A DNA stretch of 64,000 nt from positions 6,545,501-6,609,500 of the forward strand of contig NC_052474.1 in NCBI RefSeq assembly GCF_009730915.1, read 5' to 3'. A model generated the notes under the pieces. It ran no database searches and had not been told where the DNA came from. It saw only the letters and a list, made by a program, of their open reading frames with translations. Shown here piece after piece: positions 9,508 through 62,670 of this stretch (position 1 is its first letter; each line of letters starts with the position of its first letter). This DNA comes from Dioscorea cayenensis subsp. rotundata. Taxonomy: Eukaryota > Streptophyta > Magnoliopsida > Dioscoreales > Dioscoreaceae. Made by a program: the position numbers and the translations under genes.

Positions 9508-11812
9508 CTAGTAACCTCTCGTGATTTCCCAAACTCTAATTACACCATCAGTGTAACCAGTGTACAGAGTGCTCCCATCAGAGCTCCAGCTCAAACTTGT
9601 GCAGTGCAGCAGCTGGCAACACAAACTCATTAGATTTCTTTATCAAGGTAAGAAACATTATGTACAGATGCAGTATGCAGGGACAAATTATTAATCAGGA
9701 AATCCAGCACATGTTTTCTAATGGTTCATCATAACATAAGCAAAAAAACATCCTAAATCTGCCGAAGGGAATCTTCTACAATTAAATGGTTCGCAAAACA
9801 TGGAGTTGCAAACTATAGTCTAGCTCTTGTTGAAGCAACACAAACATAATATATCATAACATGATCTTCACACACCATCTAATATAGCAGATCAAAGTAA
9901 AAGCAACAAGATTTTGGTCTAAGAGAACTAAAATTGGGGTGAACTGAATTTAGCCAATTCAAGGTTATTGGCAAAAGAGGCTTAGAAAAGTAGTAGATGT
10001 CTCATCTCAGAATGGAGTGAAACTCTTGAAAATATTAACCAAGGATAGGAAATTGTAGGTCTTCTTTTGCGATGATTAGTAAATAGTGGTCATCAGGCTA
10101 ATAATGGCAGTCAAACATTTCCCACAAGAAAGTGTAAACCTATCTCTGATGCATATAGAACAGTCGATATGATTCTATAAATTGCATTACAGTTAACTCT
10201 GTGAGTAGTTTATATTCTTAAGTTCGGATCAAATGCAAACAATGATTTCCTTATGCATTCATAAGACATATATTAATGCGGTTCTCTATCTTGATTCAAC
10301 ATAGACTATAAAGAACATGTATGCATCAGCTAAAAGCAACTTATATGAATGTTTTGCACCAAAAACTCATGTCAGTGTAAACAATTTGAATAAAAATAAT
10401 AACATAGATCTATAAAAGCTACCAAAAGCTCTAACCCCCAAATGTACCTAACAATACAAAGAAAAACACAACAATGCTACAAATAATCATGCTGAAACAA
10501 AATAACAGAACCACAGCCAATTAAAGTTAACTTTAAGGAAGCCAAAATCAATGATGCTCACAATAAGTTTGTCAACGTGAAAACTAATAGGAACACATCT
10601 TATAGACCATGCAACAAAAACATAACTGAGGCAAATAAAACATGGTAAAACAAGAACACAAAGCAAAACCTAACCAAAAATCTTAGCATGGTTCTTAGAA
10701 GAATAAAAGATTCAGCATTCAGAGACCAATCTACTGATGCAGCATCATACATTCATCACCAACATGTATGCATCCAAGTAAAACTTATACAAAGCATATA
10801 AACTATATTAACCATTAAGAGAAATACTAGACCCAAACAAACAAAATAGACTTAAAACTAAAAGGAAGCAACCACAAAACATACATTTCTACCGATTTAA
10901 AGTCAAATCCCAATATATTACGCAAAGATAAGTTAATATTCGTTATACCTGATTCTTTCCAGTGGTTGCTTCGGGCTTGAGATCCTGCACAATGGACTTA
11001 CTCTCCAGGTCCCAGATCTTGACACTGACCTCAGTAGCAGCACAAAGCCAGTACCTGTTAGGGCTGAAACATAGGGAGTGGATGATGGCTCCAGCCTCAA
11101 GCGAGTAGAGCTTCTTCCCTTCGGCCAAGTCCCAAAGCAGGGTCACCCCGTCCTTACCACCACTAGCACAAAGAGAACCATCAGGGCTGACAGCGACGGC
11201 ATTCACGTAGCCTCCATGGCCGGTGAGGGTGGACCGGAGCTTACAGTTCGTCAAGTTCCAGATCTTTACCGTCCGATCCCAGGATCCAGAGACGATTGTA
11301 GGCTGGTAAGCGTTGGGGCTAAAGCGAACGCAAGAAACCCACCCAGTGTGGCTGTCGGCGTCTTGGATGGTGTACTTGCATTCGCCGAGGGTATTCCAAA
11401 GCTTGATGGTTCGGTCACGGGAGGCGGAGACGATCTGGCGATTGTCAATGGAGAATGCGACCGAGAGGACGTCCTTGGCATGGCCAACGAAGCGGCGGGT
11501 GGTGACCCCGGTGGCAAGGTCCCAGAGACGGAGCTCACCGTCCCAGGAGCCGGAGAGAGCAAACTGGCCATCGGATGAAAGGACCACGTCCTGGACGAAG
11601 TGGGAATGGCCAGTGAGGCGACGACGAGGGACGCCGTACACAGTGTTCGCCGGATCTCCGGTGCCCGTCTCTTTGGTGAGGTGCCAGACAAGGACGGACT
11701 TGTCGCGGGAGGAGGAGACGATCATGTCGGAATTGTCGATCGGAGTGGCGATCGCCGTCACCATGTCAGAATGACCTTTCAACGTGCCCCTGAGGACTAG
11801 AGTATCCGCCAT
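9508..11812 (-). CDS. RACK1: RACK1, receptor for activated C kinase 1 (40S ribosome-associated WD40 scaffold)
   Basis: Two exons: 10949-11812 (288 codons) and 9508-9612 (34 codons plus stop), separated by a 1.3-kb GT-AG intron in phase 0; total 322 residues, close to the usual plant length. RACK1 is a seven-bladed WD40 propeller on the 40S head near the mRNA exit and a scaffold for kinases and hormone/defence signalling. Visible: start [24 protein letters not shown], seven GH...WD units (WHLTKE, LWDLATG, LWNTLG, IWNLTN, LWDLAEG, IWDLESK, VWEI), and the loop [25 protein letters not shown] typical of the family. Exon 2 encodes [19 protein letters not shown] and TDGVIRVW. The end, EITRGY, differs slightly from the GIGRY I recall in other plants. 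Start, intron position and length support an intact gene. Confidence 0.97.
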
Positions 11813-11889
11813 TCTCGGTGCTGGCCGGAGCTCGCAGAGAGGTGGAAAATGGGTACTCCGCTGGCACTGCGCCGCCGAGGGAGGATTTC

Positions 11890-11937
11890 TAGGGTTTGGG
11901 TGAGAAGGCGCTAGCGTTTGGAAAGCGAGTTTATATA
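11890..11937 (-). promoter_or_regulatory. RACK1 core promoter: TATA box and telo-box
   Basis: On the minus strand TATATAAA lies at 11930-11937 and AAACCCTA (telo-box) at 11890-11897, between the TATA box and the ATG at 11812. Telo-boxes near the transcription start are characteristic of plant ribosomal-protein and translation genes, fitting RACK1. Confidence 0.6.
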
Positions 11938-11939
11938 TG

Positions 11940-13480
11940 GGGGACGAGGGTAACCCGGGTTTTTTTTATTTTTGTTTTTATTTTTTTTTTAATGGGAAAA
12001 ATAAATTATTTGTTTATTTTATTATCTATTTATTGTTTCAAAATTTAAATATCCGAAAATTTTTTTAAATAACAGTGGTTTACAATGTTTTAGTTTACTC
12101 CTAATTTTTATTTATTTATTTATTTTTTACAAAAGGAATTTATGTATTACTATTTTATGAAACCTAAAAACAGTTTAATTAATAATTAATTAATCCTTTA
12201 GAGTGACGGGGTGTAGCCTCCAATTCTCAAGTTGTGCTTTGCTACTCAAGATTTATCTTATTAAACTATTATAACTAACGCATTTTTATACTTGTTTGTC
12301 TCTTTGGTATCTTTTTATAAGAAATATTTGTTGTTTTTGTTACAAGGGGATTTGATAAACCTAGATAAATAGATATTTGCTATTAATATATCATATTTTT
12401 TTAAAAAAAAATGTTTATGTTGGAATATTCATTAATAAATTCTTTTAACAATGGATTTTATTTTCATAAAAAAAATTTATAGTTCTTTCGGTTAAAAATA
12501 AAAAAGCTAAAGCATAATTGGTTTTAATTTCTTGACTTTATATAGCTGATAGTAAAGTAACATCCTTAATTTTATTACTGATATTCTGATTACTAGTAAA
12601 AAGATTTTGTAAGAAATGAGATGATATATTTTAAATATATATAATGGATCTAAATATTCAAATAATAATTGGAGGTTTAAAATTTTTTCATATGTTTATA
12701 TTCATTACAAGTAAAAAGAATTTAACTAGGTTCTTCAAACAAAGTGAGGTTGAGGATAAGAAAGCAAATAAAGAAATAACATCAAACTGAGTTTTAATTC
12801 TCTCAACCTCAACTAAAGACCAAAAGAAAATTTAAAAAGAAATTATAATAGTTCACTCAAATGTCCCAACTAGAGAACTTGAAATAGAAAAGCAGAAGAT
12901 ATCATACACATGGTATATTTTAGATGTTTGATAACATATGATGAAAAAAAAAATGCATCTAAGGGTGCATTTGTTATGAAAGGATTTATGTCAATAAAAT
13001 AAATTAATCTTTGGCCAACTTTGGTGTTTTTCAAAGATAATTAACATGACCAAAGGTGGAAATATATATATATATATATATATATAACACGAGGAAGTTG
13101 TTATCGTTTAGGCCAAAGAATAAATTTGTTTCACTAATCAACTAACAATTTTATTGGTTATACATACCTTCTATCTTTATTTTTTTTTATTTAGTTTCAT
13201 CTTTTAAAACAATGTGGACAAGCATCCTATACATATTTTAAATTCTCAAAATCCTGACTTTTCATTTGGAAGTTAATAAATAATGACACTTAACACTTAT
13301 ATGTTGCGAGGATGGATATACTCATTATGAATAATATATAAAATTTACTACATCTCTCAATTTTATATCATAATAGATATAAATTTTCTAGTGAAATATA
13401 TGTAAAATAATATGCATGTGTAATTTTTTTATTTTTTTGTATCTTATTAAAATTTTTCAATAAATCTCACTTTCATCATT
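11940..13480. other. AT-rich intergenic region with TA microsatellite
   Basis: Gene-poor, strongly AT-rich DNA upstream of RACK1. A (TA)n tract lies at about 13063-13086. No ORF of coding character and no clear element boundaries. Confidence 0.5.
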
Positions 13481-15639: not shown

Positions 15640-18600
15640 AAACAAAACAAAACTCAATCTGATCCAATCTGGGTACGTTTAGACCGATTTCTACTCTTCC
15701 ACAATTGGCCCTCTTTGAACCCCAGATACTACCAATACGCACTTTCTACACTTGGATTCGACCATACTCCAATCTACCTGGAATTTGGGGCCCACCATTC
15801 TCGCCCCCGAATCTTTAGATTCGAAAAATCCTAGTATTCCATTGAGAATCTAAAGAACTTAATCCAGGAATGGTGGTCCAATAACAACCCCGAAGGCTGC
15901 AGGGCTTTTATCATTTCCAAAAAATTAACTTTCTAAAAGCCAATCTTCGCAGTTGGGCCAAGGACAATTTCGGTAATTCAAATCTCCTTAAAAAAATTTA
16001 TTAATGGGACTCCATTCTATCGATTCCTTAAATGAGATCAAATCTCTTTCTGAAATTGAAGCTACCTGAATCTCCCAAATCAGAGTTGAGCTCCACTCTC
16101 TATTAAAACAAGAAGAGATCTACTGGAAACAAAGATCAAGAATCACCTGGCTCAAATAAGGGGACTCTAACACAAAATATTTTCACCTTATGGCAAATGG
16201 CAGGAGAAATAAAAACTATATCCCCCAAATCCAAGTTCACGAACAATGGGTAGAAGGAAACCAAGAAATTGGCAATTGTTTCACTGATTACTTCAAACAA
16301 CAGATTGGGACCCCTATTAATCTTCGCTTCCTTCTTGATTGGCAAAACCTATTTGCATTTAAAGAAAGAGTGAATCTCTCTCATCTTGAACTCCTGTTCT
16401 CTTATGAGGAAATAAAGAAAGCAGTGTTTGATTTAAATGCTGATAAGGCACCTGGCCCAGATGGTTTCTCATTATTTTTCTTCCAGAAACATTAGGACCT
16501 TATTTAGAAAACCTTTATTAAACTTTGCGATGATTTTTACTACGGCTAGATCAATTTTGAGCGCCTGAACTAGGTCCATATTGCTCTTATCGCTAAAAAA
16601 AAGCTCCCCGACTGAAGTCTCTGATTTTTGACTTATCAGTCTAATTAACTCTACCTGCAAAATCATTTCTAAAATTCTTGCTACTAGCTAGGCTAAGCCT
16701 AGTTATTAATGACCTAGTTGAAGATTCTCAATCTGGATTTATTATGAGATGTATTGCCGATAATATTGTTGCTGCCCAAGAACTTATTTTTAATTTTCAA
16801 AAAAGGAAACTTCTTGGCTTTGCTTTCAAAGTGGACTTTGCCAAAGCCTTTGACACTCTAGACTGGAACTTCCTCCTTGACATCCTTGCAACTAGAGGAT
16901 TTGGCTCAAGATGGCTATCTTGGATCCATACCATACTTAAGACCGCAAAGGCTCAAATCCTTATAAATGGAACCACCCAAGGATTTATTCATTGCAAAAA
17001 AGGATTAAGGCAAGGAGACCCCCTTTCCTCTCTTCTGTTTGCTTTAGCTATGGATGCTCGCAGCGCTATGTTTAAACATGCCATCAACTCTAAAGTGCTG
17101 ATTGGAGTCCAATTGGATCACTCCAACAGTATATGCCATTTGCAATACGCAGATGACTTATTAATATTCTTGGAAGGAGGCCACGAAGATCTTTACATAA
17201 TCAAATTAATTCTCTACATTTTTGAAGGATCCTCGGGTCTATCTATAAACTTCTCAAAAAGTTGCCTCTATTCCACCAACTTTGGGTTCCAACCAAACTT
17301 CTCTTCCGCAACAATCCTAAACTGTAGCAGAGACTGCCTCCCTATCACATACCTTGGAGTTTCACTCTCAGGAAGAAGACCAAAATGCCAAGATTAGACA
17401 AAACTCATTAGAATGGTTCGATCAAGACTCTCTCCCTGGAAAGCAATTTATTTATCTTTAGGGGAACGTTTAACTCTTCTCAACTCTGTTTTATCCTCTA
17501 TTCCAGTTTACTGGATGTCTGTTTTCAAATCCCCAGCTTGGGTGATTCAAGAAATTGATAAAATAAGAAGAGACTTTCTTTGGAAAAGTCCAGATCTTGG
17601 ATCTAAGGGTATCCGCTTGGTTTCCTGGAAAAGATTATGCAGACCTCGTAATTAAGGAGGTTGGGGAATTCTCAATTTTCAAGAATTCAACAGTGCCTTA
17701 CTCGGAAAATGGTGGTGGAAGATCATTAACAACCCAAACAGTTGTTGGGCCAAAATTTTAAGTGCTAATTATTCCATCAAAAAACCTCTTGATACTCTTT
17801 TCCAAACTCCTCCTCGAAATAAATCTTTTTTCTAGGCAGGGATCAATTCCATCCTTCCTTCCTTTCGAGCTTGTATCTCCAAATATATAAGAAATGGAGA
17901 TAGCACATCTTTATGTCACGATCGATGGTTTGGAGGGCGAACTCTCAAAGATATTTGGCCTGATCTTTTCACTGGCTGCCCTGATCCTTGGATGACCCTT
18001 AGACAATTCATTCAACTAGACTCCCCAGAGTACCTCCTTCCATCAAGCTCATTAAACAATATCTCAACATTACTGAATTCAGTGCCGGACTGTTCCAACA
18101 TCCAAGAAGATACACATACTTGGAATTTAGTGAAAAGTGGTAACTTCTCCGTTAAATCCTTTTACAAATTCTTAATTGACGGAGGGAATCGTTGTCCAAT
18201 TTATTCCCAATTCTAGAAACTCAAATGCCCAAGCAAAATCACTTTATTTTGCTAGTTAGTTCGGGAGGACTAAATTCTTACCTTGTCCAACCTTTTCAAG
18301 AGAGGTTGTAATATAATTGCCACAGACACCTGCATTCTCTGCAACAAAAACTCAGAAACAGTAGATCATCTATTCCTCGATTGTGATTACTCAGAGAGAA
18401 TTTGGTCTTTCTTCAGACAAAGTATTAACTCCCATCTTTCACCTCATTCAATTTCCAGTATTTGGTCCTCTTGGATACCTTCTTTAAATTCTAATTTATG
18501 AAATATCTGGGATTTCATTTCTAGAGCAATTATTTGGAATATTTGGTTGGAGCATAACAACCGAATTTTTCAATCTAACTGCTTGCCCTTACATTCTACT

Positions 18601-19012: not shown

Positions 19013-19580
19013 CTAAGTTCACCTTCAATACAAAGACAGAATCAAACATAAAATTCCTCACATGAACTCACATCATTACACCAAGTTCTTAACAAGATCA
19101 TTGAAGAATCACACTATAAAACACTCAAGAGAGTGAAACATCTCCCATGAAATCCTTGAAGAGAGATTTTATTTACAAGATCAAGCTGTTCAAACCATTT
19201 CAAGCTACAACCTATATATATATATATATATATATAGTTACATCTTATATATTGATATATATATATATATGCTTGTCAAACATTTAACATGTTACTGTAC
19301 AAATAATATCAAATATAATATATAACAATTGGATACACCAATTAATTAACATCCATTTGAAGCTGAATCTTTTGTGAAGTGAAGCCTCGTTTGCCCCCAG
19401 TGTGACTTTTCTGAAGAGCTGATGCATTTTCTAGGACTGTATCTATAATCTTCCTTTTGTGTTTTCCATATTTTGTGCAGTTTTTTAAATGAATATTGCA
19501 ATTAATTTATTTTTCATGCATGCTTAAGAAAATTAAAGATTGAAAGATAATATAATGAGATGTAGAATTGAGAAGAGGAT
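19013..19580. other. Intergenic, downstream of the MIR159 cluster
   Basis: AT-rich with TA microsatellites at about 19209-19240 and 19255-19270. It lies 3' of the minus-strand microRNA cluster, so the primary transcript may end here; no terminator signal can be assigned. Confidence 0.4.
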
Positions 19581-19584
19581 GAAA

Positions 19585-19790
19585 TGTGGACTTCCCTCAA
19601 ACCAAACAAGGTTTAAACAAGGAAGGAGGTTTAGGCTCCTAGAATTCATGCAAACCACTAGCTTTTATCTCAAACAATTAATTAATGCATGTCTTAATCT
19701 CTCTTTGTTTCATCAAACAAGAACCATGAGATCGATCGATAAAGTACCAGCGGTATATATATCCATGAAATAGCAGCACATTCTTCTTCA
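19585..19790 (-). pseudogene. Decayed MIR159-like unit (distal copy)
   Basis: The 3'-arm block at 19587-19606 is a shortened, mutated miR159 site (complement begins TTTGGTTTGAGGGAAG). It is followed on the plus strand by AAGGTTTAAAC and by the loop-side block GGCTCCTAGAATTCATG, in the same order as the intact units. The matching 5'-arm CATGAAATAGCAGCA is present at about 19764 but the miR159* arm is not recognisable. Probably non-functional. Confidence 0.55.
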
Positions 19791-19937
19791 AAATTAATAA
19801 GAATATATATATATATATATATAGCATGCATGAAAGCTCTAGAATTAATTCTTCTATTTTGAAGTTCTTAAGTTATTTTGTTATAATGAAATGTATACAT
19901 AGAAGTGAAGAAGAAGAAGAAGAATATGGATGTATAT

Positions 19938-20141
19938 ACGTGGAGCTCCCTTCAAACCAAACAAGGTTCAAATTAATATAGGAATGCCTAGGCTCCTATT
20001 TCATGCAAAACACATGGCCTTTCTCAAAATTATATATATTTGTTATGCCATGACCCATGAGAAAGACAAGTGTTATCCATGAGATAGCAGCTTAAGCAAC
20101 CCTCATAAGCCCCTTCATTGGTCTTGAAGGAAGCTCCACAA
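19938..20141 (-). ncRNA. MIR159: MIR159-family precursor, copy A
   Basis: Minus-strand foldback of about 200 nt. The 3' arm (19941-19961) gives a 21-mer starting TTTGGTTTGAAGGGAGC and ending TCCA: miR159 with T in place of A at position 6. The 5' arm (20118-20138) is the imperfect partner, AGCTTCCTTCAAGACCAA on the transcript. A second paired block nearer the loop (20078-20090 with 19993-20005) matches the extra conserved duplex of MIR159/MIR319 precursors, which are processed from loop to base. miR159 directs cleavage of GAMYB-type MYB mRNAs in anther and seed development. The position-6 change could alter targets. Confidence 0.82.
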
Positions 20142-20298
20142 CAAAACCCATACTAATTCTAAAGTAAATAGAAAATCCAAGTGATTCATATATATATATA
20201 TATATATAGAATCGATAATATATATTATCGATCGAGTACTAACGTAATTTCGGATATATTTAATGGAAAGGCTTCTATATAAAAAGAGAATGAGATGC

Positions 20299-20524
20299 AT
20301 GTGGAGCTCCCTTCAATCCAAACAAGGTTCAAAATAGGATGGATTAGGCTCCTGTCTCATGTAAACCACAAGCCTATCTCAAACTTCTCTTTTTCTTCAT
20401 TGAAAAACACATTATATAGTTGAACATATAGTACTCCATGAAAGAGACTAGTGGTGTCCATGAGATAGCAGCCTAAGTCCACCTATGCAAGCCCTTTCTT
20501 TGTACTTGAGGGGAGCTTCACTTC
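20299..20524 (-). ncRNA. MIR159: MIR159-family precursor, copy B (canonical mature sequence)
   Basis: Minus-strand foldback of about 225 nt. The 3' arm (20302-20322) reads TTTGGATTGAAGGGAGCTCC plus A, canonical miR159 apart from CCA rather than CTA at its 3' end. The 5' arm (20498-20522) encodes AGTGAAGCTCCCCTCAAGTAC, pairing imperfectly with it. Near the loop CATGAGATAGCAGCCT (20459-20474) pairs with AGGCTCCTGTCTCATG (20346-20361). This is the best-preserved unit, in the same orientation as its neighbours at a spacing of about 360 nt. Confidence 0.88.
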
Positions 20525-20825
20525 AAAACCCTAATTAATTAAGTTTCTTGAAAACCAATGATCATTGTTTTTCTATGTATATATGTGTGTATATATATGC
20601 AAATGTTGTGATATCATACTTAATTATCATTCATGCATGCAATATAAAAAAGGAGATGAACTAAGCATTAGAAGTTAATTAGGAGAACCTAACTAGCTAG
20701 AACGTCAAGAGATTATATAACCATCCAAACCCAAACTCAGGGCAAGAAGATATATACGTAACCACAAAAGTGAATGAAACGATCGATATTCAAGGGATGA
20801 TGATGAACATGAAGATGGTGGATGC

Positions 20826-20905
20826 ATGTGGAGCTCCCTTCAATCCAAACAAAACAAATTAAGGTTTCTCTCGACCTCATGCATACCACAAACCTAGCTA
20901 TATAC
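20826..20905 (-). ncRNA. MIR159-like half unit: intact mature site without its 5' arm
   Basis: 20829-20849 is identical to the 21-nt mature site of copy B, and the next plus-strand block keeps CTCATGCATACCACA like the other units. No sequence resembling miR159* or the CATGAGATAGCAG block is found between here and 21060. It may be transcribed with the cluster but probably cannot form a normal foldback. Confidence 0.5.
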
Positions 20906-21087
20906 CTCACTATATATCTAATTCTCTTTATATACTATAAAGACTTGTGTATATATATAGAGAGAGAGAGAGAAAGAGAGAAGTAAAGATGAAGAAACAA
21001 TTAAGGTATTAAATAAAACAAAGATTAAGAACAAGTTCATTACCTGAAGTTCCAAGCTTTGATGCTGCAGGTAAATGGAGGGAGGGG

Positions 21088-21094
21088 ATTTATA
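21088..21094 (-). promoter_or_regulatory. Candidate TATA box of the MIR159 primary transcript
   Basis: TATAAAT (minus strand, context CCCTATAAATCCCC) about 240 nt upstream of the first miR159 site. Downstream CTTCAG/GTAATG near 21043 could be a splice donor, as many MIR genes have introns. No coding ORF uses this promoter. Confidence 0.5.
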
Positions 21095-21129
21095 GGGTAG
21101 AGTGGATGGTCGGCTGTATTTTTTCATTT

Positions 21130-22165
21130 TTTTTTCAATATTTACTTTTTTTTGAAATATAAGTCAAACTAGAAAAAGTCTCAATTTTGAAAGTCACATC
21201 TGCATGCAAGCTGGCTTGCCATCCTCTTTGTATTTCTCCATCTATCAATCACCATCTTATGAATGACTGGTAAACATATTAATGTTTCTCATGAGATGAA
21301 AGGTATGTTTTTAAATATTGAAAGTAAACTGCATGGATTTGAACCTTTTATTACTAAACTTAAATGTATATATATAGAACTGCGTTGGTTTTGAAACTGA
21401 AGATTGACGAGAGTTGTATATTGCAATTATGAGAGAAAAGATAATTGGGTGGAGATATTGCACTGAACTTTTAATATTTAAAAGATGTTGATAATTATAA
21501 GGAAGCACTTTGTTTTAGAACTTGATTAATATATAATTTGCTAGTTGATCATCAACTTGATTAGTATTATGGATTGTTTGAATATTATTGATAGGGAGAA
21601 GTAGAGATTAAAACTGCTTCTTAATTTACAGGCTTTGATGAAGAAATCCTTGTGCTTGTTGAATGAGAGTTTATTAAAGTTAATTGCAATATATATAATC
21701 TCATTGTGCACGTTAGCTAGCTTTGATTTTTAGAAACTATATATATATATATATATATGCATAATTAATCAGAGTAAAGCTACAGCTATATATATATAGA
21801 TAATCCTCTGCAGCCATTTTTACTCCTGAAATTATGAAACTTTGCATTTTGCACCCATTTGTACGGATTAGTACCGCTATAAAACAATAGAATCTAGGAG
21901 ATCAACCATCATGGATGTTTATTCAATGACATATGGCCGGCTAAAACAAGTAGTGATTTTGATAATTATTTGTTAATTAATTAATTAACAATTATTATTA
22001 ATTATGTGGCAGACCTTATTGTTGACCGGCAATTAAATAAGCCAAGATTTAACACAAACACTCCAACACATCCAATTGGCACCATGTTTAATTATACCAA
22101 TCAATTCTTCATTCGCTCATACAATTGTGTACCAAAACAGAAATTAAGAGGTTAACTTGCATTTG
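21130..22165. other. Intergenic region upstream of the MIR159 cluster
   Basis: AT-rich, with TA microsatellites (about 21739-21759, 21787-21800). It should contain upstream regulatory DNA of the cluster. No ORF or clear repeat. Confidence 0.4.
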
Positions 22166-30128: not shown

Positions 30129-30962
30129 ATGTCGGGGTTCATCATCAAAGAGTGAAACAACCGTCGATGCGACATCATTGAAGAGCTCCAACAAGAGACC
30201 GGACGGTGACCCTCCGATGATCCGTTGCTCACGAAGAGCAATTACTCGGCGTGGGCACTCAAGATGAAGGTGTACATGTGTGCGCAAGGTGTGTGGGATG
30301 GTATTGAGCCTATTGATCCAAAGGAAGAGATAGAGACGCGGAAGGATCAGATGGCTCTTACTGCCATCTATCAGGGTATTAGCGAGGAGACGCTCCTTGT
30401 ATTGGCTGAGAAGGAGACGGCCAAGGAGGCATGGGAGATGTTGAAGACAATGCACATGGGCGCCGAGCGCGTCAAGGAGGCAAAGATCCAAACTCTGAGA
30501 AGCGAGTTTGAAGGTCTACGCATGCGTGAAGCGGAGACGGTTGATGACTTTGCAACAAAGTTGACCACAATAGTCAACAAAATTCGTGCATTGGGTGACA
30601 AGGTGGAGGAGGCTTATGTCCTCAAGAAGCTTCTTCGTGCTGTCCCTTCCAAGTTTATTCAGATTGCATCGACGATTGAGCAGTTCAGCAATCTCCAAAC
30701 GATGACCGTGGAGGAGGTCATCGGGTCACTTAAAGCTCATGAAGAGCGATTGCGGGGTTTCGAGGATGAGAAAGAAGAACACATCCTATTGACAAAGGCC
30801 AAATGGAAGGCAAGAGAAGAAGGTGAAGTTACATCGAACTCGTTGAGAGGACGAGGAGGAAACAACTGGCGTGGCCGTGGGCGTGGACGCGGACGCAGTG
30901 ATGATAGAAGTGGAATTGAAGGCACTCATCAAGAGAAGAACTTTGACAAGACCAAGGTGAAA
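30129..30962 (+). pseudogene. copia gag (UBN2 domain), frameshifted
   Basis: Gag forms the virus-like particle of the retrotransposon. The N-terminus (SSKSETTVDATSLKSSNKRPDGDPP, split between frames) runs into LTKSNYSAWALKMKVYM after a one-base shift near 30222. The main frame, 30225-30962, shows QMALTAIYQGISEETLL, AKEAWEMLKTMHMGA, VDDFATKLTTIVNKIRALG and a C-terminal Arg/Gly tract (RGRGGNNWRGRGRGRGRSD). It ends in a TGA exactly where the first Cys of the zinc knuckle is expected (stop, then YNCHYFGHYAYEC). Confidence 0.9.
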
Positions 30963-30965
30963 TGA

Positions 30966-31709
30966 TATAATTGTCATTATTTCGGTCATTATGCCTATGA
31001 GTGCAGATCCAAGAAGAAGGATGAGGAAGCCTATCTTGTGGAGAAACAAGATGATGATGATGAGCCGGCGCTACTCATGACAGAAGTATGTGAGCGCTTG
31101 CAAGACATGAAGCATGCGGCAGAGGAGATCATGTTGCATGAGATGAACATCAAGCCTAGTGTTAGAACTAAGGAAATAGTGTATGGGAACAACTTGTGGT
31201 ATCTTGACACGGGTGCAAGTAACCACATGACCGGGAGCCGAAGCCAGTTCTCAGAGTTGGACGAGACAATAGTTGGGAGAGTCAAGTTCGGTGATGATTC
31301 CGTCGTAAACATCCAAGGAAAAGGCACTGTAATGTTTCAGTGTCAAAATGGTTAGCATCATCTTCTCACAGATGTTTACTTCATACCTAGTTTGTGCAGC
31401 AATATTGTGAGTTTGGGCCAACTTGATGAGCATGGATGCGAGTCGGTGATAAAAGGAGGATACTTGTGTGTCTATGATAAAGGTGGAAGGCTATTTGCAA
31501 GGGTGAAGAGATCAAAGAATAGATTATATATACTCAGTGTTAAGGCAATACATCCTGTGTGTTTGCTTGGAGAACATGGAGATGTGGCATGGCTATGGTA
31601 TGCTTGGTATTATCATTTGAATTTTCGAGCATTGATCGTCTTGAAGAAGAATCTAGTACATGAAGAAAGGAATAAGCACATCGACATTAAATATCATTTC
31701 ATTTTGTGA
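30966..31709 (+). pseudogene. copia zinc knuckle, protease and GAG-pre-integrase, fused to RNase H tail
   Basis: Continues past the gag stop: YNCHYFGHYAYEC (three of four knuckle ligands), then YLDTGASNHMTG, the aspartic-protease site with Asp at about 31204. A TAG after CQNG (31353) breaks the frame; then CSNIVSLGQLDEHGCE and LYILSVKAI form the pre-integrase region. Around 31650 the reading changes directly into ERNKHIDIKYHF, the last conserved RNase H motif, marking the internal deletion joint. Confidence 0.88.
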
Positions 31710-48235: not shown

Positions 48236-49235
48236 NNNNNNNNNNNNNNNNNNNNNNNNNNNNNNNNNNNNNNNNNNNNNNNNNNNNNNNNNNNNNNNNN
48301 NNNNNNNNNNNNNNNNNNNNNNNNNNNNNNNNNNNNNNNNNNNNNNNNNNNNNNNNNNNNNNNNNNNNNNNNNNNNNNNNNNNNNNNNNNNNNNNNNNNN
48401 NNNNNNNNNNNNNNNNNNNNNNNNNNNNNNNNNNNNNNNNNNNNNNNNNNNNNNNNNNNNNNNNNNNNNNNNNNNNNNNNNNNNNNNNNNNNNNNNNNNN
48501 NNNNNNNNNNNNNNNNNNNNNNNNNNNNNNNNNNNNNNNNNNNNNNNNNNNNNNNNNNNNNNNNNNNNNNNNNNNNNNNNNNNNNNNNNNNNNNNNNNNN
48601 NNNNNNNNNNNNNNNNNNNNNNNNNNNNNNNNNNNNNNNNNNNNNNNNNNNNNNNNNNNNNNNNNNNNNNNNNNNNNNNNNNNNNNNNNNNNNNNNNNNN
48701 NNNNNNNNNNNNNNNNNNNNNNNNNNNNNNNNNNNNNNNNNNNNNNNNNNNNNNNNNNNNNNNNNNNNNNNNNNNNNNNNNNNNNNNNNNNNNNNNNNNN
48801 NNNNNNNNNNNNNNNNNNNNNNNNNNNNNNNNNNNNNNNNNNNNNNNNNNNNNNNNNNNNNNNNNNNNNNNNNNNNNNNNNNNNNNNNNNNNNNNNNNNN
48901 NNNNNNNNNNNNNNNNNNNNNNNNNNNNNNNNNNNNNNNNNNNNNNNNNNNNNNNNNNNNNNNNNNNNNNNNNNNNNNNNNNNNNNNNNNNNNNNNNNNN
49001 NNNNNNNNNNNNNNNNNNNNNNNNNNNNNNNNNNNNNNNNNNNNNNNNNNNNNNNNNNNNNNNNNNNNNNNNNNNNNNNNNNNNNNNNNNNNNNNNNNNN
49101 NNNNNNNNNNNNNNNNNNNNNNNNNNNNNNNNNNNNNNNNNNNNNNNNNNNNNNNNNNNNNNNNNNNNNNNNNNNNNNNNNNNNNNNNNNNNNNNNNNNN
49201 NNNNNNNNNNNNNNNNNNNNNNNNNNNNNNNNNNN
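48236..49235. other. Assembly gap, 1000 N
   Basis: Exactly 1000 undetermined bases, the usual placeholder for a gap of unknown size. It removes the middle and 3' part of the peptidyl-tRNA hydrolase gene. Confidence 1.
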
Positions 49236-61054: not shown

Positions 61055-61634
61055 TTAATTTATTTCGGGAGTACTTACATCATTGAGTCTTCTCATCCCG
61101 ATTTTATGTATAAGTCTTTGGTAAATGCACTTGGGAAGTGATTTTGTGAATAGATCTGCTTGATTATCATTAGATTGAATCTTTTGAACTTCTATAATGC
61201 TTTTTTTTTGGAGGTCATGAGTATAGAAAAATTTTGATGATATATGCTTCGTTTTATCACCTTTAATATAACCTCCTTTGTATCTAAGAAATACAAGCAC
61301 TATTGTCTAAATTACTGTAGCATTTTGTTGTAGCAGTTGGTAATTTGCATGATGACTATATATGACCAATCATGGATCGCAACTACTGGCATTCTGGACT
61401 TGCTTCATGTAGAGCTAGAATTTCAGCATGATTTGATGAAGTAGCTGTAAGAGTTTGTTTTGTAGAACACCATGAGATAGCTGTACTATTATAAGAAAAT
61501 ACATATCCAGTTTGAGATCGCCCTTTTTGAGGATCAGACAGATACCCAGCATCAACAAAGCCTGTGAGGTTTGATGAAGATTCTTGTGAATAAAATAAGC
61601 TCAGATCTGTAGTTCCTCGTAAATAATGCAGCAC
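61055..61634 (-). pseudogene. copia RNase H, broken
   Basis: First part (61383-61634): MLHYLRGTTDLSLFY, GFVDAGYLSDPQKGRSQTGYVF with catalytic Asp, and HAEILALHEA. After a break the terminal part (61055-61300) has KTKHISSKFFYTHDL, NQADLFTKSLP and HKIGMRRL. The break between them (61300-61383) has stops. Confidence 0.88.
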
Positions 61635-61705
61635 ATCTTTTACTCCTTTCCAATGTCTTCGTGTCGGTATAGAGCTGTATCTTGCTAGAAAATTTACTAC
61701 AAAAG

Positions 61706-62670
61706 CTATATCATTGTATTATTTGCAAGGTATATTAATGCACCAATTGCACTTAGATATGGAGTTTCTGGACCAAGAATGATCTCTCCTTCTTTAGGTG
61801 GACGAAATGGATATTTTTGTATATCAAGTGTCCAGACAACCATTGGTGTACTCAGTGGATAAGCATTCTCCATATTGAATCTCTTTAGCACCTTTTCTGT
61901 ATAGGTTGATTGATGCACAAATATTCCCGAGGGTAAGTGCTCGATTTGTATGGCAAGACAAAATTTGGTCTTTCCTAAATCTTTCATTTCAAATTCCTTC
62001 CTCAAATATGATACTGCAATAGCAATTTTAGAAGGAGTGCCTACAAGATTTAAATCATCCACATATACAGCTATCACAACAAAACCATTAGTATAACTTT
62101 TAATAAACACACATGGACATATACAATTATTTTGGTACATTTCTTTTATAAGATATTCACTGTGACGGTTATACCACATCCGTCCAGATTGTTTTAATCC
62201 ATAGAGAGATCTCTGTAATTTAATAGAATATAAATGATGATGATTTATAATGTATGTTATTGTGTATCCTTTATGGATTTTCATATATATGTCATTTTCA
62301 AGTAATCCATACAGATATTATGTGACAACATCCATCAACTACATATCTAATTTATTACTTGCTACCATGGCAATTAAAAATGGAAAAGTAATTCCATCAA
62401 TTACAGGAGAATATGTTTCTTCATAATCAATACCAGGCATTTGAGAAAACCTTGAGCAACCATACTTGCTTTGTATCTCATAATTTCATTATTTTTATTT
62501 CTTTTTCTCACGAACACCCATGTATAACCGACTGGTTTTATCCCTTCTGGTGTTGGCACTATCGGCCCAAATACCTCACGTTTTAATAGGGAATTTAGCT
62601 CAGCCTAGATAGTTTCTTTCCATTTTGGCCAATCATTTCTTTGTCGACATTCATCAATAGATCGTGGGCC
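61706..62670 (-). pseudogene. copia reverse transcriptase, broken
   Basis: N-terminal part at 62430-62670 (RNDWPKWKETI, stop, AELNSLLKREVFGP, GYTWVFVRKRNKNNEIMRYKA, MVAQGF). Catalytic part at 61706-62284 (LQRSLYGLKQSGRMWY, then VIAVYVDDLNLVG with the Asp pair, MKDLGKTKFCLAIQIEH, RFNMENAYPLSTPM). Stops near 62300-62420 separate the two. Confidence 0.9.

What the first reader, a model, noticed from the sequence alone, without database searches (positions are those of the whole stretch)
19585..21100. Tandem MIR159 cluster on the minus strand
Four miR159-like sites in one orientation, 240-530 nt apart, two with full foldbacks including the loop-proximal second duplex, behind one TATA box. Most plant MIR159/319 loci are single; rice MIR159c/d/e is, to my knowledge, a comparable cluster. 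Copy A carries a mature variant (T at position 6) next to a canonical copy B, so one primary transcript may yield two miR159 species.
Basis: partly seen in the sequence, partly recalled or inferred. Interest (0 to 1): 0.85.

Follow-up and report, generated by a model that had tools for sequence, protein, structure and literature searches.

The report
Yam miR159 cluster with two specificities
A stretch of white-yam DNA holds two working-looking copies (and two decayed ones) of a well-known plant regulatory microRNA side by side, and one copy differs by a single letter that makes it fit a different set of yam genes much better, which suggests a testable division of labour inside one small gene cluster.

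Summary
The cluster is real. It lies on the minus strand of a Dioscorea genome, most likely white yam, D. cayenensis subsp. rotundata. Two hairpins pass Rfam MIR159: A (19929-20148, 95 bits) and B (20290-20530, 83 bits); both fold better than all 200 shuffles. C and D are relics: C keeps a perfect mature sequence without a 5' arm; D keeps a weak loop-proximal stem and a decayed mature site. Tandem MIR159 clusters are known in maize and sorghum, though the maize one is not among that paper's compact clusters.

The new part is copy A's U at position 6, unique among the five full MIR159 hairpins found in this genome. It improves pairing to seven apparent coding sites (one GAMYB-like MYB, six SPEAR/NOZZLE-like genes) and worsens it for the two classical GAMYB-type sites. 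At up to two mismatches A's complement finds 12 places, the reversed pattern none. U6 isoforms, and miR159 acting on NOZZLE-like genes, are each in print; I did not find them joined as one co-encoded, target-splitting pair. Expression, cleavage and co-transcription are untested.

The parts
19929..20148 (-). Copy A: full MIR159 hairpin
   Evidence: Rfam RF00638 95 bits, full model; z -8.06; 20 of 21 mature positions paired
19941..19961 (-). Copy A mature miR159 variant, UUUGGUUUGAAGGGAGCUCCA (U at position 6)
20118..20138 (-). Copy A star arm
   Evidence: paired with the mature site, duplex -38.1, z -8.4 against shuffles; span, ensemble partners 20118-20138
20290..20530 (-). Copy B: full MIR159 hairpin
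   Evidence: Rfam RF00638 83 bits, full model; z -5.42; 17 of 21 mature positions paired
20302..20322 (-). Copy B mature miR159, UUUGGAUUGAAGGGAGCUCCA
20499..20520 (-). Copy B star arm (weaker duplex, -26.3)
20829..20849 (-). Copy C: relic, perfect mature sequence (same as B) without its own 5' arm
   Evidence: 32 exact nt shared with B
19616..19786 (-). Copy D: relic of the loop-proximal stem
   Evidence: weak partial RF00638 match, positions 48-158, 19.5 bits, E 0.18, below the cut-off; z -1.25 for 19575-19800
19587..19606 (-). Copy D: decayed mature site, 20 nt, shares U at position 6 with A
21088..21094 (-). Strict TATA-box-like TATAAAT, candidate promoter element
   Evidence: only one in 19500-21400 of this strand; not shown to work
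19506..19511 (-). First AATAAA downstream of the TATA on this strand, candidate poly(A) signal
   Evidence: chance of none in between about 0.06

Best explanation
This is an old tandem MIR159 cluster of white yam. Two hairpins (A, B) look able to be processed; two copies (C, D) have decayed. Inferred: one Pol II transcript that starts near 21065 carries both hairpins, and DCL1 cuts each from the loop downwards, as known for MIR159/319, to release two 21-nt miR159 species. Seen in the sequence: the two species differ at one base, position 6, and this base splits their fit. B (A6) fits the two classical GAMYB-type sites better. A (U6) fits an ELPSNQ-type GAMYB-like MYB on C8 with no mismatch at positions 2-21 (G:U at position 1) and six SPEAR/NOZZLE-like genes with one or two mismatches, at positions 15 and 20. 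Inferred: A represses these transcription-factor genes more strongly than canonical miR159 does.
For: Two hairpins over the Rfam cut-off with strong folds. Between A and B the mature differs at 1 of 21 positions, while the 3' flank differs at 11 of 16 and the loop at 21 of 57 plus 1 gap. A and B are sisters on a 13-precursor tree (support 93), with a path of 0.43 against 0.39 for the C5/C17 MIR159 pair. Pairing scores by my own Allen-type script, lower is better: C8 MYB A 0.5, B 2.5; SPEAR C5/C17 A 1.0, B 3.0; SPEAR C8/C15 A 2.0, B 4.0; GAMYB C7 and C9 A 5.0, B 3.0. At two or fewer mismatches A's complement finds 12 places: 5 MIR loci and the 7 apparent coding sites; the reversed pattern finds 0.
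Against: No expression, cleavage or transcript data. The seven sites come from two gene families and are not independent. At three mismatches A's pattern gives 36 places and its reverse 35. Counting all non-MIR sites at two or fewer mismatches, U6 ties for fifth of 63 one-base changes (7 sites; top 13), not first. Canonical isoforms can still reach the sites: best canonical scores are 2.5 for the C8 MYB, 3.0 for SPEAR C5/C17 (both B/C) and 3.0 for SPEAR C8/C15 (the C17 CUA locus). The canonical pattern reaches 6 coding sites at two or fewer mismatches, though none at one. Pfam NOZZLE matches of the two SPEAR frames tested are below the cut-off. One-transcript origin rests on weak motifs.
Confidence: 0.6

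Rival explanations
1. An ordinary tandem MIR159 cluster. Position 6 in copy A drifted neutrally, and its better fit to the SPEAR and C8 MYB sites has no consequence, because canonical miR159 from other loci already handles those genes or nobody does.
For: Other loci in the genome make canonical miR159; canonical isoforms score 2.5-3.0 on the same sites; the sites exist apart from copy A, since ELPSNQ is in 19 of 120 listed MYB relatives. Two sister copies, C and D, have decayed, so the cluster is under weak constraint in part.
Against: A is the better-preserved hairpin (20 of 21 mature positions paired against 17 for B). U6 gives the most sites at one or fewer mismatches of all 63 one-base changes (3; next 2) and the most apparent coding sites at two or fewer (7; next 6).
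Confidence: 0.33
2. C is not dead: its intact mature sequence pairs with the star arm of B or A in the same transcript, so that the cluster can fold in alternative ways.
For: C keeps 32 exact nt shared with B, and the self-comparison extends the pair no further. Its best partners in the region are A star (-24.2) and B star (-22.2). B mature also pairs better with A star (-37.1) than with its own (-26.3) as a bare duplex.
Against: In the ensemble of the whole 1551-nt stretch the pairing of C or B mature with A star, and of C with B star, is 0.0.
Confidence: 0.04
3. The whole cluster is decaying: B and perhaps A are on the way to the state of C and D, and the single-copy loci supply the miR159.
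For: Two of four copies are relics; B has 4 unpaired mature positions and 5 unpaired bases in its star span and the lowest score of the 13 full hairpins (83 bits).
Against: A and B still pass the cut-off, and the mature differs by only 1 of 21 between copies as far apart as the C5/C17 pair.
Confidence: 0.1

Closest known systems
Maize chromosome 8 MIR159a/b/h/i/j/k cluster and the sorghum chromosome 3 pair (PMC2773440, passages and section 6)
   Same: Several MIR159 genes side by side in a monocot
   Different: The maize MIR159 cluster is not listed among that paper's compact clusters (under 2000 nt between neighbours); the yam hairpins are about 140 nt apart. Whether the loci are orthologous is untested.
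Rice miR159c/d/e (isoform table in PMC2292181; that they form a cluster is recalled, not checked)
   Same: miR159c AUUGGAUUGAAGGGAGCUCCA has the CCA end of the yam cluster
   Different: Begins with A, has A at position 6; synteny untested
zma-miR159e AUUGGUUUGAAGGGAGCUCCA (as a probe in PMC3783389, passages)
   Same: U at position 6 and CCA end; 20 of 21 letters as copy A
   Different: First base A. PMC2773440 reports maize miR159e not expressed in the tissues sampled and perhaps not functional
Conifer miR159 with U6, UUUGGUUUGAAGGGAGCUCUA (Pinus pinaster PMC6683148; Cunninghamia PMC12027079; passages)
   Same: U at position 6
   Different: CUA end; no cluster or target split described in the passages seen
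miR159 acting on NOZZLE-like genes: tomato (cited in PMC6724108) and predicted in Wollemi pine (PMC10473749); passages
   Same: miR159 aimed at the NOZZLE/SPL-type family
   Different: No dedicated isoform or cluster described in the passages seen
Homologous plant MIR clusters (PMC2812943, passages)
   Same: Copies of one MIR family close together on one strand, taken as a sign of co-transcription
   Different: Families named in the passages are miR166, miR169 and miR395, not miR159

Membership tests
MIR159 (RF00638), copies A and B | match to the family's sequence-and-structure model above its gathering score | tested here: met
   95 and 83 bits against 74
MIR159 (RF00638), copies A and B | stable long foldback with a loop-proximal second stem | tested here: met
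MIR159 (RF00638), copies A and B | miR159 and not miR319 type mature sequence in the 3' arm | tested here: met
   UUUGG[A/U]UUGAAGGGAGCUCCA against CUUGGACUGAAGGGAGCUCCC of the miR319-type loci
MIR159 (RF00638), copies A and B | 21-nt mature and star small RNAs in sequencing data | not testable with these tools
   no yam reads at hand; the main text of the Chinese yam small-RNA paper has no miR159 string
MIR159, copies C and D | foldback that pairs mature and star | tested here: not met
   D only 19.5 bits
Polycistronic plant MIR cluster | hairpins of one family close together on one strand | tested here: met
   A and B, about 140 nt between hairpins
Polycistronic plant MIR cluster | one primary transcript | not testable with these tools
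   only TATAAAT and AATAAA positions
Ortholog of the grass MIR159 cluster | shared flanking genes | not testable with these tools
   no grass genome at hand; no rice coordinates found
miR159 target genes for copy A | near-perfect complementarity in a coding exon of a known miR159 target family | tested here: met
   family names partly by motif
miR159 target genes for copy A | cleavage at the site | not testable with these tools
   no degradome data at hand

The most novel reading that the evidence does not exclude
One primary transcript delivers two miR159 species that divide the target set by a single seed base: A6 keeps classical GAMYB genes down, while U6 holds an ELPSNQ-type GAMYB-like MYB and a SPEAR/NOZZLE-like family of at least six genes. 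Copy A would then be a sub-functionalised miR159 with its own targets in reproductive development, perhaps with counterparts in maize miR159e and the conifer U6 miR159.
Probability: 0.35. Interest if true: 0.72.

Novelty: new variant of a known kind. Interest (0 to 1): 0.5.

Why it matters
A review of miR159 says that it remains a possibility whether variant miR159 isoforms have sub-functionalised to regulate different targets (PMC6724108, passages). This locus makes that testable: two co-encoded isoforms, one base apart, with opposite rank order on named genes of the same genome. The candidate targets belong to families (GAMYB-type MYBs, NOZZLE/SPEAR-like factors) tied to anther, pollen and ovule development, which would matter in yam, a crop with separate sexes (the last point is recalled).

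Tried and rejected
C as a working copy with a hidden 5' arm: rejected. B mature with A star as the real hairpin: strong as a bare duplex, but 0.0 in the ensemble. Recent duplication of A and B: not favoured, they differ about as much as the C5/C17 pair. Paralogous segments: the 10-kb stretches round the three single MIR159 loci share with the window only the precursor (two of three) and short repeat-like matches. Antisense MIR159 on the plus strand: a shadow of the hairpins, below the cut-off. Synteny with rice: not reached. U6 as the best of all one-base changes by every count: rejected, it ties for fifth of 63 when all non-MIR sites at two or fewer mismatches are counted; most of the higher counts rest on eight copies of one identical site, of which I looked at one.

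In some searches I dropped 12 MIR loci from the 44 places. Of the 32 left I had looked at 15 in frame and called 10 coding by my own reading; the other 17 were not inspected. No gene models were at hand.

'Not found in print' rests on ten searches of an open-licence library. Fifteen papers were opened; of these I saw passages found by term and, for PMC2773440, also section 6. None was read in full, and no supplements.

Full report
Where it is. The window is G000:C4:6545501-6609500 of a 584-Mb plant assembly. A PPR protein in it is 82% identical to a Dioscorea zingiberensis protein and 97% to an unnamed one. A protein from another place of the same genome is 99% identical to LOC120277917 of Dioscorea cayenensis subsp. 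rotundata. So the genome is white yam or very close to it.

What is there. Four miR159-like sites lie on the minus strand, in order of transcription C 20829-20849, B 20302-20322, A 19941-19961 and D 19587-19606. Two sit in hairpins over the Rfam MIR159 cut-off of 74: A with 95 bits and B with 83. Each folds better than all 200 shuffles and has the upper, loop-proximal stem. A has 20 of 21 mature positions paired, B 17. C has the mature sequence of B but no partner arm better than shuffles within about 300 nt on either side and no special fold. D keeps a weakly recognised upper stem (19.5 bits, E 0.18; fold z -1.25) and a decayed mature site that shares U6 with A. So there are two candidates for work and two relics.

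Transcription. The strict TATAAAT occurs once in 19500-21400 of the minus strand, at 21094-21088; the looser TATA motif occurs 30 times, so this argument is weak. The first AATAAA after it on that strand is at 19511, beyond D; the chance of none in between is about 0.06 at the window's rate. One transcript is inferred, not shown. In Arabidopsis, rice and poplar, MIR genes less than 1 kb apart are strongly biased to the same strand, which was taken as a sign of co-transcription (PMC2812943, passages).

Inventory and age. A genome-wide RF00638 search gave 27 matches, which I read as 13 hairpins, each with an antisense match, plus one partial match on C11. By mature sequence five are miR159-type (A, B, C5:24538304, C17:2197531, C17:4489659) and eight miR319-type. 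The three single miR159 loci end CUG, CUA and CCU. Only the cluster ends CCA, and of the five only A has U6. On a tree of the 13 precursors A and B are sisters (support 93); their path (0.43) is close to that of the C5/C17 MIR159 pair (0.39), so the tandem duplication is not recent. In A's coordinates the mature differs from B at 1 of 21 positions, the star arm at 5 of 21, the loop at 21 of 57 plus 1 gap and the 3' flank at 11 of 16.

What U6 fits. A search of the genome with the complement of the canonical CCA isoform, up to 3 mismatches, gave 44 places (reversed control 5): 12 MIR loci and 32 others. I looked at 15 of the 32 in frame. Two are GAMYB-type sites, ELPSFQ on C7 and ELPSLQ on C9. 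They are named by motif: the C7 frame has no Pfam match and the C9 frame only the end of a Myb domain below the cut-off. One, on C8, lies in a frame with clear Myb domains and the motif ELPSNQ. Six lie in SPEAR/NOZZLE-like genes with EPPSNQ (C5, C17, C8 twice, C15 twice). The two of these frames tested match Pfam NOZZLE only below the cut-off (E 0.06 and 0.18), but a D. sansibarensis relative is annotated as SPEAR family, and all six have an RPPQRGLG[VI]A segment upstream. One is in a C2H2 zinc-finger gene on C4.

The Asn codon (AAC) in place of the Leu or Phe codon moves the mismatch: canonical miR159 meets A:A at position 6, and U6 pairs. Scores by my own Allen-type script, lower is better: C8 MYB A 0.5, B 2.5; SPEAR C5/C17 A 1.0, B 3.0; SPEAR C8/C15 A 2.0, B 4.0 (the CUA isoform of C17 3.0); GAMYB C7 and C9 A 5.0, B 3.0; C2H2 A 4.0, B 2.0. 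One base reverses the rank order on two classes of genes.

Controls. The search with A's own complement, up to 3 mismatches, gave 36 places, its reverse 35, so sites with three mismatches mean little. At two or fewer there are 12 places, 5 MIR loci and the 7 apparent coding sites, and the reversed pattern gives 0. Among all 63 one-base changes of the canonical CCA isoform, on the 32 non-MIR places, U6 reaches the most sites at one or fewer mismatches (3; next 2) and the most apparent coding sites at two or fewer (7; next 6; the unchanged isoform 6). By all sites at two or fewer it ties for fifth (7; top 13). The seven sites belong to two families and are not independent. ELPSNQ is in 19 of the 120 listed MYB relatives, among them Dioscorea sansibarensis, Zingiber and Typha; all five listed SPEAR relatives have EPPSNQ, but the four with names are all Dioscorea. 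So at least the MYB motif is wider than yam, and I read copy A as having come to fit existing sites.

What is known. Tandem MIR159 clusters exist in maize (six genes) and sorghum (two), but the maize paper's table of compact clusters holds no miR159, whereas the yam hairpins are about 140 nt apart. U6 isoforms are in print: zma-miR159e, a wheat sequence under another name, Pinus pinaster and Cunninghamia. miR159 acting on a NOZZLE-like gene is reported for tomato (cited) and predicted for Wollemi pine. The miR159 review leaves open whether variant isoforms took different targets. The pieces are known. Their union, two isoforms in one compact cluster with opposite target order, I did not find in the ten searches listed under Tried and rejected.

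Verdict. A real cluster with two working-looking and two decayed copies, and one variant that fits a second set of targets. Everything beyond sequence fit and folding is inference.

Noticed in passing
L034 (G000:C4:335777-335797): A C2H2 zinc-finger gene carries TGGTCCTCCCTTCAATCCAAA in frame, a two-mismatch site for canonical miR159.
   Followed up: partly
L038 (C7:25847155), L040 (C9:4832522), L039 (C8:1719203): Three GAMYB-type sites in this genome, each with one non-Watson-Crick position among 2-13 for canonical miR159: position 7 in two, position 6 in one.
   Followed up: partly
G000 C5 and C17: C5 and C17 share a MIR159 pair, a MIR319 pair and a SPEAR-like pair, as if they were duplicated chromosomes.
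   Followed up: no
L048/L049 (C8) and L057/L058 (C15): SPEAR-like genes come in pairs, 23 kb apart on C8 and 356 kb apart on C15.
   Followed up: no
G000:C17:4450087-4450282 and C17:4489659-4489867: A miR319-type and a miR159-type hairpin lie about 39 kb apart on opposite strands.
   Followed up: no
window 10943-11965 (-): A frame that I take for RACK1 (WD40; family by recall, Pfam WD40) lies about 8 kb from the cluster; a possible anchor for synteny with grasses.
   Followed up: no
window 16160-18216 (+), 30210-31709 (+), 61383-62317 (-): Reverse-transcriptase and gag frames, broken into pieces: LINE-like and copia-like remnants.
   Followed up: no
window 48236-49235: A run of exactly 1000 N (assembly gap), next to a frame that looks like peptidyl-tRNA hydrolase by recall.
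   Followed up: no
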